Assembly (NCBI GenBank): GCA_017526785.1
Contig: JAFXQV010000035.1
Location: 1-34,442, forward strand
Direction: 5' to 3'
DNA length: 34,442 bases
From: Oscillibacter sp.
GTDB taxonomy: Bacteria > Bacillota > Clostridia > Oscillospirales > Oscillospiraceae
In this document: positions 5,737 to 33,890 of the stretch, in pieces
Position numbering within the stretch: position 1 is the stretch's first letter
Layout: every line of letters starts with the position of its first letter
Translations under genes and position numbers: made by a program
The notes under the pieces: model-generated
Seen by the model: only the letters and a program-made list of their open reading frames with translations
Database searches by the model: none
What the model was told of the DNA's origin: nothing

Positions 5737-7125
5737 TCATTTCGGGAAGTTCAGGTCGTCAAATGTCCTGTCGTCCTGATACGGGTTCAGGTGTTCGTTG
5801 ATGAGCGTCAAGGCCTTTTCGGTGTCGGTGTAAAGGTAGGGGCTTTTCCACGTCCCGGAGAGCGTGGCGAACTGGATACCGTCCGCCCCGGCGTAAAAGG
5901 CCTCCTTGCCCAGCCACGCTAAATTGGGGAGATTCAAGTCCGTCTTGACGTACTTCTTGAAAATCCGCGCCATGTCGTCCAACTTCGTCAAGGTGGCGAG
6001 GGATATTATTTGCTTGGCGGCGGCTTTCAGGAAGGCTTGCTGTGTGCGGATACGGCCTAAGTCCTCGTCGCCGTAGCCGGAGCCGTCGCTGTTGTGCCGG
6101 AAGCGTACGACTTTCAGGGCGGTTTCGCCGTCCAAGTGCTGGAAGCCCTTGGAGACGTGAATTTTCAGGTTCTGCTTGGGGTCCTCGTAGTCCATGTCTA
6201 TCGGCACATCGAAGTCGACGCCGCCGATGGCGTCAATGACGGCCGCGAATCCGTTGAGGTCGACTTCCACCGTGTAATCGACGGGAATCGACATCTGCTC
6301 CGCGACAGTCCGCGACAAAAGCTCCATGCCGCCGTTTTTATAGGCGGCGTTGATTTTGTGCGGGGTGCCGTTGACGATGGCTTTCGTGTCGCGGGGGATG
6401 CTGACGCCGAACAGCCGATGCTCTTTGGCGTCGACGGACAGCAAAATCACGGTGTCACTGCCGCCGTTGTGGTCGTCGACGCCCGCCATAAGAATGGTGT
6501 AGAAGCCCTCTTTCCGGTTCCGCGCGGCGGCACGGGCGGGGGCGGCGGCGGTGATGTGGTCGGAGACGGCCTTTTTCGGCGGCAAGGTGTCGCCGACGGA
6601 CAGGGCAGCGGAAGCCGCCTGTTCCGTGGAAATCTGGTCGGGGTGGCGAACCTGCAACTCCTGAAACACCAAGCGGTCGCCGAGCCTGCCCACGGCCAGC
6701 AGAAGCAGAACCAGTATCGCCACATGGGTGAACAGGGAACGCAAGCCGCCACGGGGGGCGCGTCTCCGAGCCTGTCCGCGACGGGCAATCGGTTTCCGTT
6801 CACGGCGTCTCCGTTGCGGTACGCGTTCGCGGCTTGACGCCGTTTTCCGTTGCGGTACGCGTTCGCGGCTTGACGCCGTTTTCCGTTGCGACACGCGCTC
6901 GCGGCTCGACGCTGTTTTCCGTTCCGGGGCGCGTTCACGATTCGACGCCGTTTTCCGTTGCGGCACGCGCTCACGGCTTGACGCCGTTTTCCGTTGCGAC
7001 ACGCGCTCGCGGCTCGACGGGGCTTTCCGTTTCGGTGCGTGTTCCTGTTCCGATGTACGCCCACGGGCAGAGTTGTCTTTTCGAGGGAGCCGCCGTCGCG
7101 GCACACGTTCAAAGTCGGCGGGCAT
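5737..7125 (-). CDS. LytR-CpsA-Psr (LCP) family cell-wall glycopolymer ligase with repeat-rich basic N-terminus
   Basis: This 462-residue membrane protein has a very basic cytoplasmic tail (1-130), one membrane helix (about 133-147, THVAILVLLLLAVG) and an extracellular LCP domain (about 207-400). LCP proteins transfer undecaprenyl-linked polymers such as teichoic acids or capsule to peptidoglycan. Conserved elements seen are SDT (223-225), the PRDT motif (244-247), HKINAAY (256-262), the VRFRH segment with two arginines (340-344) and DLGRIRTQQAFL (355-366). The tail contains six tandem 12-residue repeats near KTASSRERVPQR (34-105), unusual for the family and mostly charged. AAGGAGA lies 7 bases before the ATG. 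The gene is monocistronic, with its own promoter and a shared terminator. Confidence 0.93.
   Translation of the reverse strand: MPADFERVPRRRLPRKDNSARGRTSEQEHAPKRKAPSSRERVSQRKTASSRERVPQRKTASNRERAPERKTASSRERVSQRKTASSRERVPQRKTASSRERVPQRRRRERKPIARRGQARRRAPRGGLRSLFTHVAILVLLLLAVGRLGDRLVFQELQVRHPDQISTEQAASAALSVGDTLPPKKAVSDHITAAAPARAAARNRKEGFYTILMAGVDDHNGGSDTVILLSVDAKEHRLFGVSIPRDTKAIVNGTPHKINAAYKNGGMELLSRTVAEQMSIPVDYTVEVDLNGFAAVIDAIGGVDFDVPIDMDYEDPKQNLKIHVSKGFQHLDGETALKVVRFRHNSDGSGYGDEDLGRIRTQQAFLKAAAKQIISLATLTKLDDMARIFKKYVKTDLNLPNLAWLGKEAFYAGADGIQFATLSGTWKSPYLYTDTEKALTLINEHLNPYQDDRTFDDLNFPK
6811..7026 (-). repeat. Six 36-bp in-frame tandem repeats inside the LCP gene
   Basis: 216 bases encode six consecutive 12-residue units, consensus K-[TA]-[AP]-S-[SN]-R-E-R-[VA]-[PS]-[QE]-R. 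Several copies are nearly identical at DNA level, which points to recent slippage or unequal crossing-over. Each unit carries four or five basic residues and one or two acidic ones. The number of units is likely to differ among strains. Confidence 0.92.
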
Positions 7126-28814: not shown

Positions 28815-28829
28815 AAGGGGGTGGCGCGT

Positions 28830-30095
28830 ATGCGTCAGCCATTCGCGGACGCGATACGCCCGGAGACGCTGGACGATGTGGTAGGACAGGCGCATTTACT
28901 GGCACCGGGTGCGGTGTTGCGGCGTCTGATTGAACACGGCACCGAAACAAATATGGTCTTTTACGGCCCCTCCGGCACGGGGAAGACGACGGTTGCCAAT
29001 ATCATTGCCAAGCGTACACAGAAGGCCTTGCGGCGTCTGAACGCGACGACGGCCTCTCTGCAGGATGTCAAGGAGGTGTTGTCGGAGGTCGGTACGCTGA
29101 CGGCTCCCGGCGGCGTCCTGCTGTATCTGGACGAAATCCAGTATTTCAACAAGAAGCAACAGCAAAGCCTTTTAGAGTTCATGGAGAACGGACAAATTAC
29201 GCTGATTGCGTCCACGACCGAGAATCCGTACTTTTACGTATACGGCGCGTTACTGTCCCGGAGCGCGGTCTTTGAGTTTAAGTCCGTGCCGCCGGAGGAG
29301 ACCAAAAAGGCCGTCTTGCGTGCCTTGGAACTCGAAAAAGCGCGTTCGGCGTTGCCGCTGGAATGGGAGGCGGGGCTTCCCGATTATCTGGCGTTGTCGG
29401 GCGGCGGGGACGTGCGGAAGGCCGTCAGCGCGGTGGAACTGCTTTTAGAGGCGGCCTTGCCCGCAGACGGGAGACTGTTCCTGACCCGCGCCGACGCCGA
29501 ACAGATTACCGTCAAGAGCGCCATGCGCTACGACCGGGGCGGCGACGCGTCCTATGACGACGCCTCCGCGCTGATGAAGTCGTTACGCGGAAGCGACCCC
29601 GACGCCGCGTTACACTATCTGGCGCGGTTTCTGGAGGCGGGCGACCTCATTACCCCGTGTCGGCGCTTACTCTGTTCGGCAAGTGAAGATATCGGGCTTG
29701 CCTACCCGCAGGCGGCCGCGATTGTCAACGCGTGCGTGGACACCGCCACGCGTCTGGGACTGCCGGAGGCGCGCCTGCCGCTGGCGCAGGCCGCCATTCT
29801 GCTGGCGACCGCGCCGAAGTCCAACAGCGTCGTGGAGGCCATCGACAAGGCCATGAAGGACGTACGGCAAGGCCGTACCGGGGACGTGCCGCGACATTTG
29901 CAAAACGTCCACGCGGACACGTCCGGCTTTGACAATCAACAGCACTACAAGTACCCCCATTCGTATCCGCGCCACTGGGTGGAGCAGCAGTATCTCCCGG
30001 ACGCGCTACAGGGTACGCGTTACTACGAATGGGGCGACAACCGTACCGAACAGGCCGCCAAAGCCTACTGGGAGGGCATTTACGGGAAGCGTTGA
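28830..30095 (+). CDS. rarA: Replication-associated recombination protein RarA (MgsA/WRNIP1 family)
   Basis: The 421-residue AAA+ ATPase acts at stalled replication forks. It begins with PFADAIRPETLDDVVGQAHLL, the RarA lead-in, and has Walker A GPSGTGKT (46-53), Walker B LLYLDEI (97-103) with IQYFNKKQQQSLLEFMENG, sensor 1 IASTTENPYF (126-135) and the arginine-finger segment LLSRSAVF. The C-terminal part (SASEDIGLAYPQA, then HYKYPHSYPRHWVEQQYLP) is the tetramerisation domain of this family. The ATG at 28830 follows AAAGGGGG at a good distance; a GTG nine bases earlier is the alternative. A DUF951 gene follows 16 bases later. Confidence 0.95.
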   Translation: MRQPFADAIRPETLDDVVGQAHLLAPGAVLRRLIEHGTETNMVFYGPSGTGKTTVANIIAKRTQKALRRLNATTASLQDVKEVLSEVGTLTAPGGVLLYLDEIQYFNKKQQQSLLEFMENGQITLIASTTENPYFYVYGALLSRSAVFEFKSVPPEETKKAVLRALELEKARSALPLEWEAGLPDYLALSGGGDVRKAVSAVELLLEAALPADGRLFLTRADAEQITVKSAMRYDRGGDASYDDASALMKSLRGSDPDAALHYLARFLEAGDLITPCRRLLCSASEDIGLAYPQAAAIVNACVDTATRLGLPEARLPLAQAAILLATAPKSNSVVEAIDKAMKDVRQGRTGDVPRHLQNVHADTSGFDNQQHYKYPHSYPRHWVEQQYLPDALQGTRYYEWGDNRTEQAAKAYWEGIYGKR

Positions 30096-30111
30096 ACGCC
30101 GGAGGACGATT

Positions 30112-30294
30112 ATGGATTTGCACGTACACGACCGGGTGGAACTGAAAAAGCCGCACCCGTGCGGCGGGAAGGCGTGGGAGATTCTGCGCGTGGGCATGGA
30201 CATCAAACTCCGCTGTCTGACTTGCGGACACGAGTTAATGTTGCCGCGCAGTAAGGCGGAAAAGAGCATACGGAAAATGCTTCCCGACGCGTGA
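30112..30294 (+). CDS. DUF951 family small zinc-ribbon-like protein
   Basis: The 60-residue protein has VELKKPHPCGGKAWEILRVG (9-28) and RCLTCGHELMLPR (34-46), the fixed pattern of DUF951 proteins, with C17, C35 and C38 as probable metal ligands. Family members occur widely in Bacillota, often near chromosome-maintenance genes; no function is established. GGAGG (30101-30105) stands 6 bases before ATG 30112. It directly follows rarA and probably shares its transcript. Confidence 0.93.
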   Translation: MDLHVHDRVELKKPHPCGGKAWEILRVGMDIKLRCLTCGHELMLPRSKAEKSIRKMLPDA

Positions 30295-30330
30295 TGTATC
30301 ATTTTGGAGAGGGGAGAGGACATGGGCAAC

Positions 30331-30453
30331 CACTGTCAACAACTTAAGAAAAAAGCCCAAACCATTGCCCCCGAAAACCTGCTCTTTCCATGTCGTTTTA
30401 ACCGATTCCCGGAACTGGGAGACAGGGGTAAAATCCTTAAGTTGTTGACAGTG
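30331..30453. mobile_element. 123-bp MITE with IS4/IS231-like ends
   Basis: Perfect 18-bp terminal inverted repeats, CACTGTCAACAACTTAAG (30331-30348) and its complement (30436-30453), enclose 87 bases without coding capacity. The element is flanked by a perfect 9-bp direct repeat ATGGGCAAC (30322-30330 and 30454-30462), the target-site duplication. The inner end motif CAACTTAAG followed by A-rich sequence recalls IS231-type ends of the IS4 family. No transposase is in the window, so it would need one encoded elsewhere. Confidence 0.88.
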
Positions 30454-30517
30454 ATGGGCAACCGGGAAACGGTAATTGCACTGCCGGACAGTGTGCCGGA
30501 CTACAAAATGGGCTATG

Positions 30518-30592
30518 TTTCCCCGTCAGCAGTCCCGCGAAGCCCTCCCCGCGTGCGGGAGGGTGGCGCGTCGCGCCGGGTGGGGTGCTTTT
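30518..30592. repeat. Palindromic interspersed repeat cluster upstream of the TRAP operon
   Basis: CCCTCCCCGC (30543-30552) pairs with GCGGGAGGG (30555-30563), then GGCGCG-T-CGCGCC (30565-30577). The left part (TTTCCCCGTC and AGTCCCGCGAAGCCC) recurs in reverse at 33860-33890, and the right part recurs in reverse at 24013-24039. These are modules of one repeat family. Confidence 0.8.
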
Positions 30593-30614
30593 AAGTTTAT
30601 GACATCCGGTGAAA

Positions 30615-30645
30615 ACTCCTTTATTTTCACCGCACAGCTCGAAAA
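30615..30645 (+). repeat. Degenerate third copy of the 62-bp repeat end
   Basis: TCCTTT, then TTCACCGCACAGCTCGAAAA, matches the last part of the repeat at 33961-34022 with one substitution in the final 20 bases and a short deletion before them. It ends 27 bases before the -35 box of the TRAP promoter. Confidence 0.6.
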
Positions 30646-30671
30646 AATTGCATGGCTCCCTTCAAAAATCC

Positions 30672-30700
30672 TTGCAAATTGTATCCGGACAGGTTATAAT
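30672..30700 (+). promoter_or_regulatory. Promoter of the TAXI-TRAP operon
   Basis: TTGCAA (30672-30677), 17 bases, TATAAT (30695-30700); 59 bases before the ATG. Confidence 0.85.
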
Positions 30701-30759
30701 TCAAAAATGGCGGGATGTTTCTCCCGGATTGCATGATTGATGAAATGAGGTTGAAGCGT

Positions 30760-31755
30760 ATGAAAAAGAAGCTCTCTATTTTGCTCTCCGCCCTGCTTGT
30801 GCTGGCTCTGCTGACCGCGTGCGGCGGCTCCGGCGCTCCCAACGCTGGCGGCGTCTCCGGCATTGCCGCCTCCAACGGCAACCTGACATTCACCACAGGC
30901 GGCGACCAAGGCACGTATTACGCGCTGGGCAGTGTCCTCGCCGGGCAGGTCAGCGCCGTCACGAACACCAATGTCACCGCCATTACGTCCGGCGGCTCTC
31001 AGGCCAACATTCTGGCTCTCTCCGACGGAGACGCGCAACTCGGCTTCGTGCAGTCCGACGTGATGGCCTACGCCTACAGCGGTACCAACCTCTTTGACAC
31101 CCCCGTACCCGGCTTCTCGACCGTCGCCGCGCTCTATACCGAACAGGTGCAGATTGTCACGCTCAATCCCGATATCAAAAGCGTGGCCGACCTCGTGGGC
31201 AAGACCGTCTCCGTCGGCGACGCCGGCTCCGGTACCTACTTCAACGCCGTCGACATCCTCAACGCCTACGGCATTGACGCCGAAACCGATATCAACCCCG
31301 TGTACGAGTCCTTCGGCACCAGTGCCGACAGCCTCCAAGACGGCAAAATCGACGCGGCGTTTGTCGTCGCGGGCGCTCCGACCAATGCCATCACCTCCCT
31401 GTCCGCGACAAAACAGGTCTACCTCATCAGCCTTGACGACGACCACATCAACGCCCTGATTGCCTCGTCCCCGTACTATACACAAAATGTCATTCCGGCG
31501 TCCACGTACAATCTCCCCGCCGACGTGACGACCGTCGCCGTGGGCGCGGTCGTCGTGGCGCGCGACGATACCTCCGACGATGATGTGTACAACTTCGTCT
31601 CCGGCGTGTTTGAACACCTCGACGACGTGACCGCCTCCCACGCCAAGGGCGCGGAACTCAATCTCGATTTCGCGGCGTCCGTGACCTCCGTGCCGTATCA
31701 CCCCGGCGCGGCGCGCTACTTCGCCGAAAAGGGCTTTGATGTCGACACAAAGTAA
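30760..31755 (+). CDS. TAXI family TRAP transporter solute-binding lipoprotein
   Basis: The 331-residue protein has a lipoprotein signal (MKKKLSILLSALLVLALLTAC, lipidated C21). The mature part reads LTFTTGGDQGTYYALGSVLA, the opening motif of TAXI (TRAP-associated extracytoplasmic immunogenic) proteins, then SGGSQANILALSDGDAQLGF and VGKTVSVGDAGSGTYFNA. It captures a small organic acid or amino acid outside the membrane; reported TAXI ligands include glutamate and 2-oxoglutarate-like compounds, but this ligand is unknown. GAGG lies 9 bases before ATG 30760. A hairpin with TTTT separates it from the permease gene, which would keep the binding protein in excess. Confidence 0.94.
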   Translation: MKKKLSILLSALLVLALLTACGGSGAPNAGGVSGIAASNGNLTFTTGGDQGTYYALGSVLAGQVSAVTNTNVTAITSGGSQANILALSDGDAQLGFVQSDVMAYAYSGTNLFDTPVPGFSTVAALYTEQVQIVTLNPDIKSVADLVGKTVSVGDAGSGTYFNAVDILNAYGIDAETDINPVYESFGTSADSLQDGKIDAAFVVAGAPTNAITSLSATKQVYLISLDDDHINALIASSPYYTQNVIPASTYNLPADVTTVAVGAVVVARDDTSDDDVYNFVSGVFEHLDDVTASHAKGAELNLDFAASVTSVPYHPGAARYFAEKGFDVDTK

Positions 31756-33790: not shown

Positions 33791-33890
33791 ACGCGCCACC
33801 TTCCCCGCACTCCCTACTATCGTCTGATGACAATATTCCCCCACTTCGTGGGGGAGATAGGGGGCTTCGCGGGACTGTCGACGGGGAAAA
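33791..33890. repeat. Composite palindromic repeat after the TRAP permease gene
   Basis: GCGCCACCTTCCCCGCACTCCC resembles the reversed stem of 30543-30570. CCCCCAC-TTC-GTGGGGG (33838-33854) is a perfect hairpin that may also act as the TRAP terminator. GGGGCTTCGCGGGACTG and GACGGGGAAA then match the reverse complement of 30518-30545. Confidence 0.75.

What the first reader, a model, noticed from the sequence alone, without database searches (positions are those of the whole stretch)
30322..30462. A complete 123-bp MITE with perfect 18-bp ends and a 9-bp target duplication
The inverted ends CACTGTCAACAACTTAAG are perfect, the 9-bp flanks ATGGGCAAC are identical, and nothing inside codes. Perfect ends and flanks point to a recent insertion by a transposase in trans. 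The CAACTTAAG motif suggests an IS4-family, IS231-like parent. Insertion plus duplication add 132 bases, a multiple of three, and the element is open in the frame entered, so it adds 44 codons to a small ATG frame with a good ribosome site instead of breaking it.
Basis: partly seen in the sequence, partly recalled or inferred. Interest (0 to 1): 0.72.

Follow-up and report, generated by a model that had tools for sequence, protein, structure and literature searches.

The report
Small IS4-type gene-free jumping element
It is a 123-base mobile DNA fragment without genes of its own, found twice in this bacterium's genome and most likely moved by the enzyme of a related IS4-type jumping gene; it is real and fairly recent, but of a well-known kind.

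Summary
Window 30331-30453 is a 123-bp element with perfect 18-bp inverted ends between 9-bp repeats ATGGGCAAC. A second, 100% identical copy lies elsewhere in the genome (C36:14167-14289) with its own repeat GTATGAGTT. A 122-bp, 90%-identical copy lies in a goat-reticulum Oscillibacter MAG with a third repeat, CTTTCCATG. So it moves. The same end with one base changed starts a larger element at a contig edge of this genome, followed by an N-terminus resembling IS4-family transposases. In a Spirochaetaceae MAG an IS4-family transposase ends 20 bases before the same end, and the MITE's right 24 bases equal that IS end. IS4-family parentage is supported; the IS231 subgroup is not, since its conserved third base fails and annotated relatives are of ISPa1635 type. 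But the small gene it would lengthen has no support: its downstream part enters a dispersed repeat and has no match in 29 relatives' loci. Known kind, new member.

The parts
30322..30330 (.). left target repeat ATGGGCAAC (10 nt if the first C of the end is counted)
30331..30348 (+). left terminal inverted repeat CACTGTCAACAACTTAAG
   Evidence: same end at 5 places of the own genome with up to 3 mismatches
30349..30435 (.). inner part, 87 nt, no family match, no structure of its own
   Evidence: frame open on +
30436..30453 (-). right terminal inverted repeat; outermost 24 bases of this side equal the right end of a Spirochaetaceae IS4-family element (L141)
30454..30462 (.). right target repeat ATGGGCAAC
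30322..30594 (+). frame that stays open through the element (90 codons); probably not a gene
   Evidence: against a gene:
30112..30294 (+). DUF951 gene upstream (context)
   Evidence: Pfam PF06107, 98.8 bits, cut-off 25

Best explanation
[quoted passage not shown] An IS4-type transposase made elsewhere in the cell would bind the two 18-bp ends, cut the element out and paste it into a staggered target, whose repair leaves the 9-bp (or 10-bp) repeat. The probable local source is the element whose left end lies at C31:61274 of the same genome. Shown: two identical copies in this genome and a related copy in another MAG, each with its own target repeat; a larger element with nearly the same end in this genome; an IS4-family transposase beside the same end in a Spirochaetaceae MAG. 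Inferred: cut-and-paste chemistry (shown for IS231A, as stated in PMC2266710), and that the C31 element has or had a complete transposase. Effect in the window: insertion behind the DUF951 gene, probably without consequence; in C36 it cuts a PIN-domain gene short.
For: Perfect ends and repeats. Second copy 100% identical over 123 bases with repeat GTATGAGTT. L107: 90.2% identical, repeat CTTTCCATG. C31:61274, end with 1 mismatch, followed by a 50-aa N-terminus similar to those of IS4-family transposases in L208 (E 1.4e-5) and L207 (E 2.5e-4) in single comparisons. L141 and L144 transposases pass the NCBIfam IS4 model (119.6 and 118.0 bits, cut-off 115); L141 has the YREK motif and ends 20 bases before the end CACTGTCAACAACTTAAG, whose first 24 bases equal the MITE's right end. 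Short elements with these ends and 9-10 bp repeats: 20 of 60 examined pairs of ends, against 1.24 with flanks dealt anew.
Against: No complete parent is assembled in the own genome: PF01609 gave one match there, below cut-off, on C20, and the IS4 model likewise one on C20, below cut-off. The C31 piece itself matched no family model. Beyond the end, C31 shows no likeness to the MITE, so the MITE is not a plain internal deletion of that element. 40 of the 60 pairs of ends elsewhere have no exact repeat of 5 bp or more. No empty site was found. L144 departs from YREK by one place (K where the R stands).
Confidence: 0.92

Rival explanations
1. A MITE specifically of the IS231 subgroup.
For: Ends match 7 of 8 conserved IS231 end positions; cut-and-paste with repeats near 10 bp.
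Against: Position 3 is C, not T; 9-bp reading lies below 10-12 bp. Transposase relatives listed are ISPa1635-like or plain IS4 family, none of Bacillus among the named genera shown (15 of 33 records listed). No IS231 transposase was compared directly.
Confidence: 0.12
2. A functional coding insert: the element adds 44 codons to a translated small protein.
For: 132 bases, frame open through the element, good ribosome site before ATG 30322.
Against: Downstream flank without match in 29 relatives' loci and in a dispersed repeat from 30518; no family match; the goat relative has 122 bp; copy 2 ends the frame it enters.
Confidence: 0.04
3. A hairpin RNA or terminator-type repeat, not a transposable element.
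For: Long stem, RNA z -5.92.
Against: The stem is the two ends alone, the inner part is unstructured; no Rfam match in 30100-30800; no terminator called at the element; target repeats at three different sites.
Confidence: 0.02

Closest known systems
MITEs of prokaryotes in general (review PMC10969869, passages seen)
   Same: Short, inverted ends, target repeats, no transposase gene, ends shared with an IS
   Different: Nothing of principle; this family of copies is unnamed as far as my searches go (exact end sequence in 0 papers of the held library)
IS4 family, ISPa1635-like elements (L207 plasmid record; L208 Desulfosarcina)
   Same: Related transposases (L144 against L207: 33% over 316 columns); ends of the same style, CAATGTCATCAACTT in L207
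   Different: Third base of the end A there, C here; the MITE codes for nothing
IS231 and its mobile cassettes MIC231 (Bacillus; named in PMC2266710)
   Same: Shares the AA--TAA part of the end; IS231 cassettes are also moved in trans (recalled)
   Different: Third base fails; duplication 9 or 10 here, 10-12 there; MIC231 carries passenger genes (recalled)
Rickettsia palindromic elements
   Same: About 150 bp and able to enter frames without stopping them (passages of PMC10969869)
   Different: Those sit in frame in many real genes; here the one open frame has no support and copy 2 breaks its gene

Membership tests
MITE | short element with terminal inverted repeats | tested here: met
   123 bp, perfect 18-bp ends
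MITE | target duplication that differs from site to site | tested here: met
   three copies, three repeats
MITE | no transposase of its own | tested here: met
   87 inner bases; the frame through it matches no family
MITE | ends shared with an autonomous IS of the same cell | tested here: inconclusive
   C31:61274 end with 1 mismatch and a transposase-like start, but cut by the contig end
IS4 family (parent) | DDE transposase of IS4 type | tested here: met
   L141 and L144, NF033592 over cut-off, PF01609 over cut-off; tested on the Spirochaetaceae IS, not on the own one
IS4 family (parent) | YREK motif Y-(2)-R-(3)-E-(6)-K | tested here: met
   L141 YNKRRGIETEYKTVK; L144 has no match to the pattern
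IS4 family (parent) | spacing D(60~110)D(100~150)E (PMC2266710) | tested here: inconclusive
   79 and 89 residues between D14, D94 and E184 of the L141 piece (residues assigned by me); the second lies below the approximate range
IS4 family (parent) | target repeats of about one helix turn | tested here: met
   9 or 10 bp; 18 of 60 pairs elsewhere with 10, 2 with 9
IS231 subgroup | ends CAT-------AA--TAA | tested here: not met
   7 of 8 positions; position 3 is C
IS231 subgroup | direct repeats of 10-12 bp | tested here: inconclusive
   9, or 10 if the shared C is counted
IS4 subgroup | ends -AATR--------WTW | tested here: not met
   6 of 7 positions; position 3 is C, not A; subgroup left open

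The most novel reading that the evidence does not exclude
The element tends to land on start codons and so replaces the leader in front of the gene behind it: in two of the three copies known here the target repeat holds a start codon and the element lies in the same orientation to the frame (window ATG 30322; rsgA of the goat MAG, whose start lies within the repeat CTTTCCATG read on the other strand). The third copy lies inside a PIN-domain gene.
Probability: 0.04. Interest if true: 0.5.

Novelty: new member of a known kind. Interest (0 to 1): 0.2.

Why it matters
It adds an unnamed IS4-type MITE to a little-studied group of gut bacteria, and shows one 18-base end shared letter for letter between Oscillibacter-type bacteria and Spirochaetaceae MAGs, in one of which short elements with these ends are numerous. 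That is useful for annotation and for tracing exchange of elements between gut bacteria, but it is not surprising.

Tried and rejected
Without result: the MITE in plasmid and phage records, the end pattern in viral contigs, the L144 transposase in viral contigs (6 stretches matched a peptide pattern, none a relative by tblastn), the end sequence in papers (three spellings, 0 papers), Rfam. Frames beside the ends in G030 (L105, L015) look like other genes, by inspection only. The IS4-family transposases of G009 and the goat MAG (L209, L210; over the cut-off) have other ends, CAATGTCATTTAGTTAGG and CAATGTCGTTTAGTTAGG, so I do not take them for the parent. The piece on C20 of the own genome (L016) has no such end within 5 mismatches. 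Each end carries an outward TTGACA; no promoter-like site was called at the element. No strictly orthologous empty site was found: relatives share the DUF951 gene but not the flank behind it. Organism groups of the 118 stretches were counted by hand from the accession prefixes. That the Spirochaetaceae and Treponema MAGs come from termites is recalled; their titles do not say so. Papers: PMC2266710, abstract and passages; PMC10969869, passages; all other papers only as search listings.

Full report
What is there. The window holds a 123-bp element at 30331-30453 with perfectly complementary 18-bp ends and the 9-bp repeat ATGGGCAAC on both sides. It lies behind the genes for an MgsA-type AAA+ ATPase (28821-30095) and a DUF951 protein (30112-30294; Pfam). 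Chance is unlikely for the ends alone: in 100 Markov versions of the window the longest such arm was 17 bp, in one run; the window has five arms of 12 bp or more, against 1.05 on average.

It is mobile. The own genome (2.34 Mb, 38 contigs) holds two matches, both 100% over 123 bases. The second, C36:14167-14289, is flanked by GTATGAGTT on both sides and cuts short a frame with a PIN_3 domain match (41.6 bits, cut-off 27). A goat-reticulum Oscillibacter MAG (RGIG3329, L107) holds a 122-bp relative, 90.2% identical over 123 aligned columns, between copies of CTTTCCATG at the start of an rsgA gene. Otherwise it is rare. Of 60 relatives (the own genome counted) 2 have a match: the own genome, and G019 with only a 22-base end at a contig edge. 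Of 400 genomes drawn from the family, 1, the own one, with at most two candidates scored in each genome shown. None in 72,556 plasmid and 50,697 phage records.

Length of the duplication. In all three copies, and in L133, the base after the right repeat is C, like the first base of the end. Each can so be read as a 10-nt repeat. I cannot tell 9 from 10.

The parent in this genome. With up to 3 mismatches the end occurs five times: both ends of both copies, and once with one mismatch at C31:61274; the reversed-pattern control gave 1 forward and 0 reverse. With R at the seventeenth base and at most 1 mismatch the control is 0, and 4 of 99 relatives have the end. The C31 place is 255 bases from the contig end. 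Behind the end starts a frame, MTLLECAERIRAIFSNPH..., that runs off the contig. Its 50 residues resemble the N-termini of two annotated IS4-family transposases (E 1.4e-5 over 28 residues, E 2.5e-4 over 44, single comparisons without composition correction), but no family model matched so short a piece. G019 holds a decayed relative of this start. The rest of the element is not in the assembly as far as searched: PF01609 and the IS4 model each found only one piece, on C20, below cut-off.

The same end elsewhere. By accession (counted by hand) 72 lie in one Spirochaetaceae MAG (Nc350_bin98), 32 in other Spirochaetaceae, Spirochaetales or Treponema MAGs, 10 in a rabbit Ruminococcus MAG, 3 in two Oscillibacter MAGs and 1 in a Chloroflexi MAG. 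In the first MAG a transposase ends 20 bases before such an end in L141; L116 shows what looks like the same place; L144 is a second, with one mismatch in the end. L141 and L144 pass the NCBIfam IS4 model (119.6 and 118.0 bits, cut-off 115) and PF01609. L141 has the YREK motif and DDE spacings of 79 and 89 residues (residues assigned by me); L144 has K in the place of the R. L110 and L148, by their coordinates probably one place seen twice, carry the left end, an IS4-type N-terminus and pieces of nearly the same protein (87-93% identical), broken by another element whose transposase passes the IS1634 model. So the two ends and the transposase belong to one IS type, though no single contig shows it whole. 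The MITE's right end equals that of L141 for 24 of 24 bases, and the goat copy's does too; the MITE's left side and the C31 element agree only within the end.

Short elements with these ends. In the scan's loci I examined 60 pairs of ends (at most 2 mismatches each, 61-420 bp, both flanks held). 18 have exact 10-bp and 2 exact 9-bp repeats; 40 have none of 5 bp or more; flanks dealt anew gave 1.24 with 8 or more on average. Pairs with more mismatches or without flanks were dropped before this count. Several of the listed targets are palindromes such as GGGGAGACTTCCCC.

Which subgroup. Table 1 of PMC2266710 (passages) gives CAT-------AA--TAA and 10-12 bp for IS231, -AATR--------WTW and 10-13 bp for IS4. 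The end here fits 7 of 8 and 6 of 7 positions, failing position 3 of both. Of 33 plasmid records with a relative of L144, 15 were listed; nine are annotated ISPa1635-like, five IS4 family, one transposase. L144 is 33% identical to one ISPa1635-like protein over 316 columns, and the ends of that element and of a Desulfosarcina one are of the same style. I leave the subgroup open, IS231 being the less likely; no IS231 protein was compared.

The open frame. But the right flank (30454-30760) had no match in the loci of 29 relatives fetched around their DUF951 genes (30 loci, the own included, were fetched of 87 genomes with a match among 99). Of 15 other matches in the genome to the flank 30454-30620, 14 lie in its part from 30518 on, some of them short. 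No family matches the frame. The goat element is a base shorter, and in C36 the frame ends about five codons after entering the element. I take the open frame as chance.

Verdict. A genuine and fairly recent IS4-type MITE: known kind, new member, low surprise. The two identical copies speak for recent movement, though gene conversion between them cannot be excluded.

Noticed in passing
relatives' loci L165-L194, just behind the DUF951 gene; window 30292-30330: A tiny single-helix membrane peptide (about 29-41 aa, e.g. MNKKTTRIIALALVVIMILALVASMIAPYV) follows the DUF951 gene in 27 of 30 loci examined, in 25 with a start overlapping the stop by 4 bases; it was not found in the window, L167 and L168 (no shuffled control). 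One of three tested resembles the stressosome miniprotein Prli42 below cut-off (19.2 bits, cut-off 27.5).
   Followed up: partly
G000 C36:14167-14289 (L001 1501-1623): The second MITE copy cuts short a PIN_3-domain frame.
   Followed up: partly
L017-L134, chiefly JAISZQ01 (Spirochaetaceae bacterium Nc350_bin98): Very many short elements of about 120-340 bp with these ends, several in palindromic targets such as GGGGAGACTTCCCC, sometimes side by side.
   Followed up: partly
L090 175-204 and L095 5397-5426 (rabbit Ruminococcus MAG): Two 30-base near-palindromes that look like two element ends back to back.
   Followed up: no
window 30518-30545 and 33862-33889: Inverted pair of a GC-rich dispersed repeat, with further matches across the genome.
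   Followed up: no
window 6774-7061: 36-bp tandem repeat inside a long frame on the minus strand (5737-7125), giving a basic repetitive N-terminal part.
   Followed up: no
G000 C31:61274 to the contig end (L007 1501-1755): An IS4-type element start interrupts a frame with a weak Rpn-type match (22.6 bits, cut-off 52.1); the contig breaks inside the element.
   Followed up: partly
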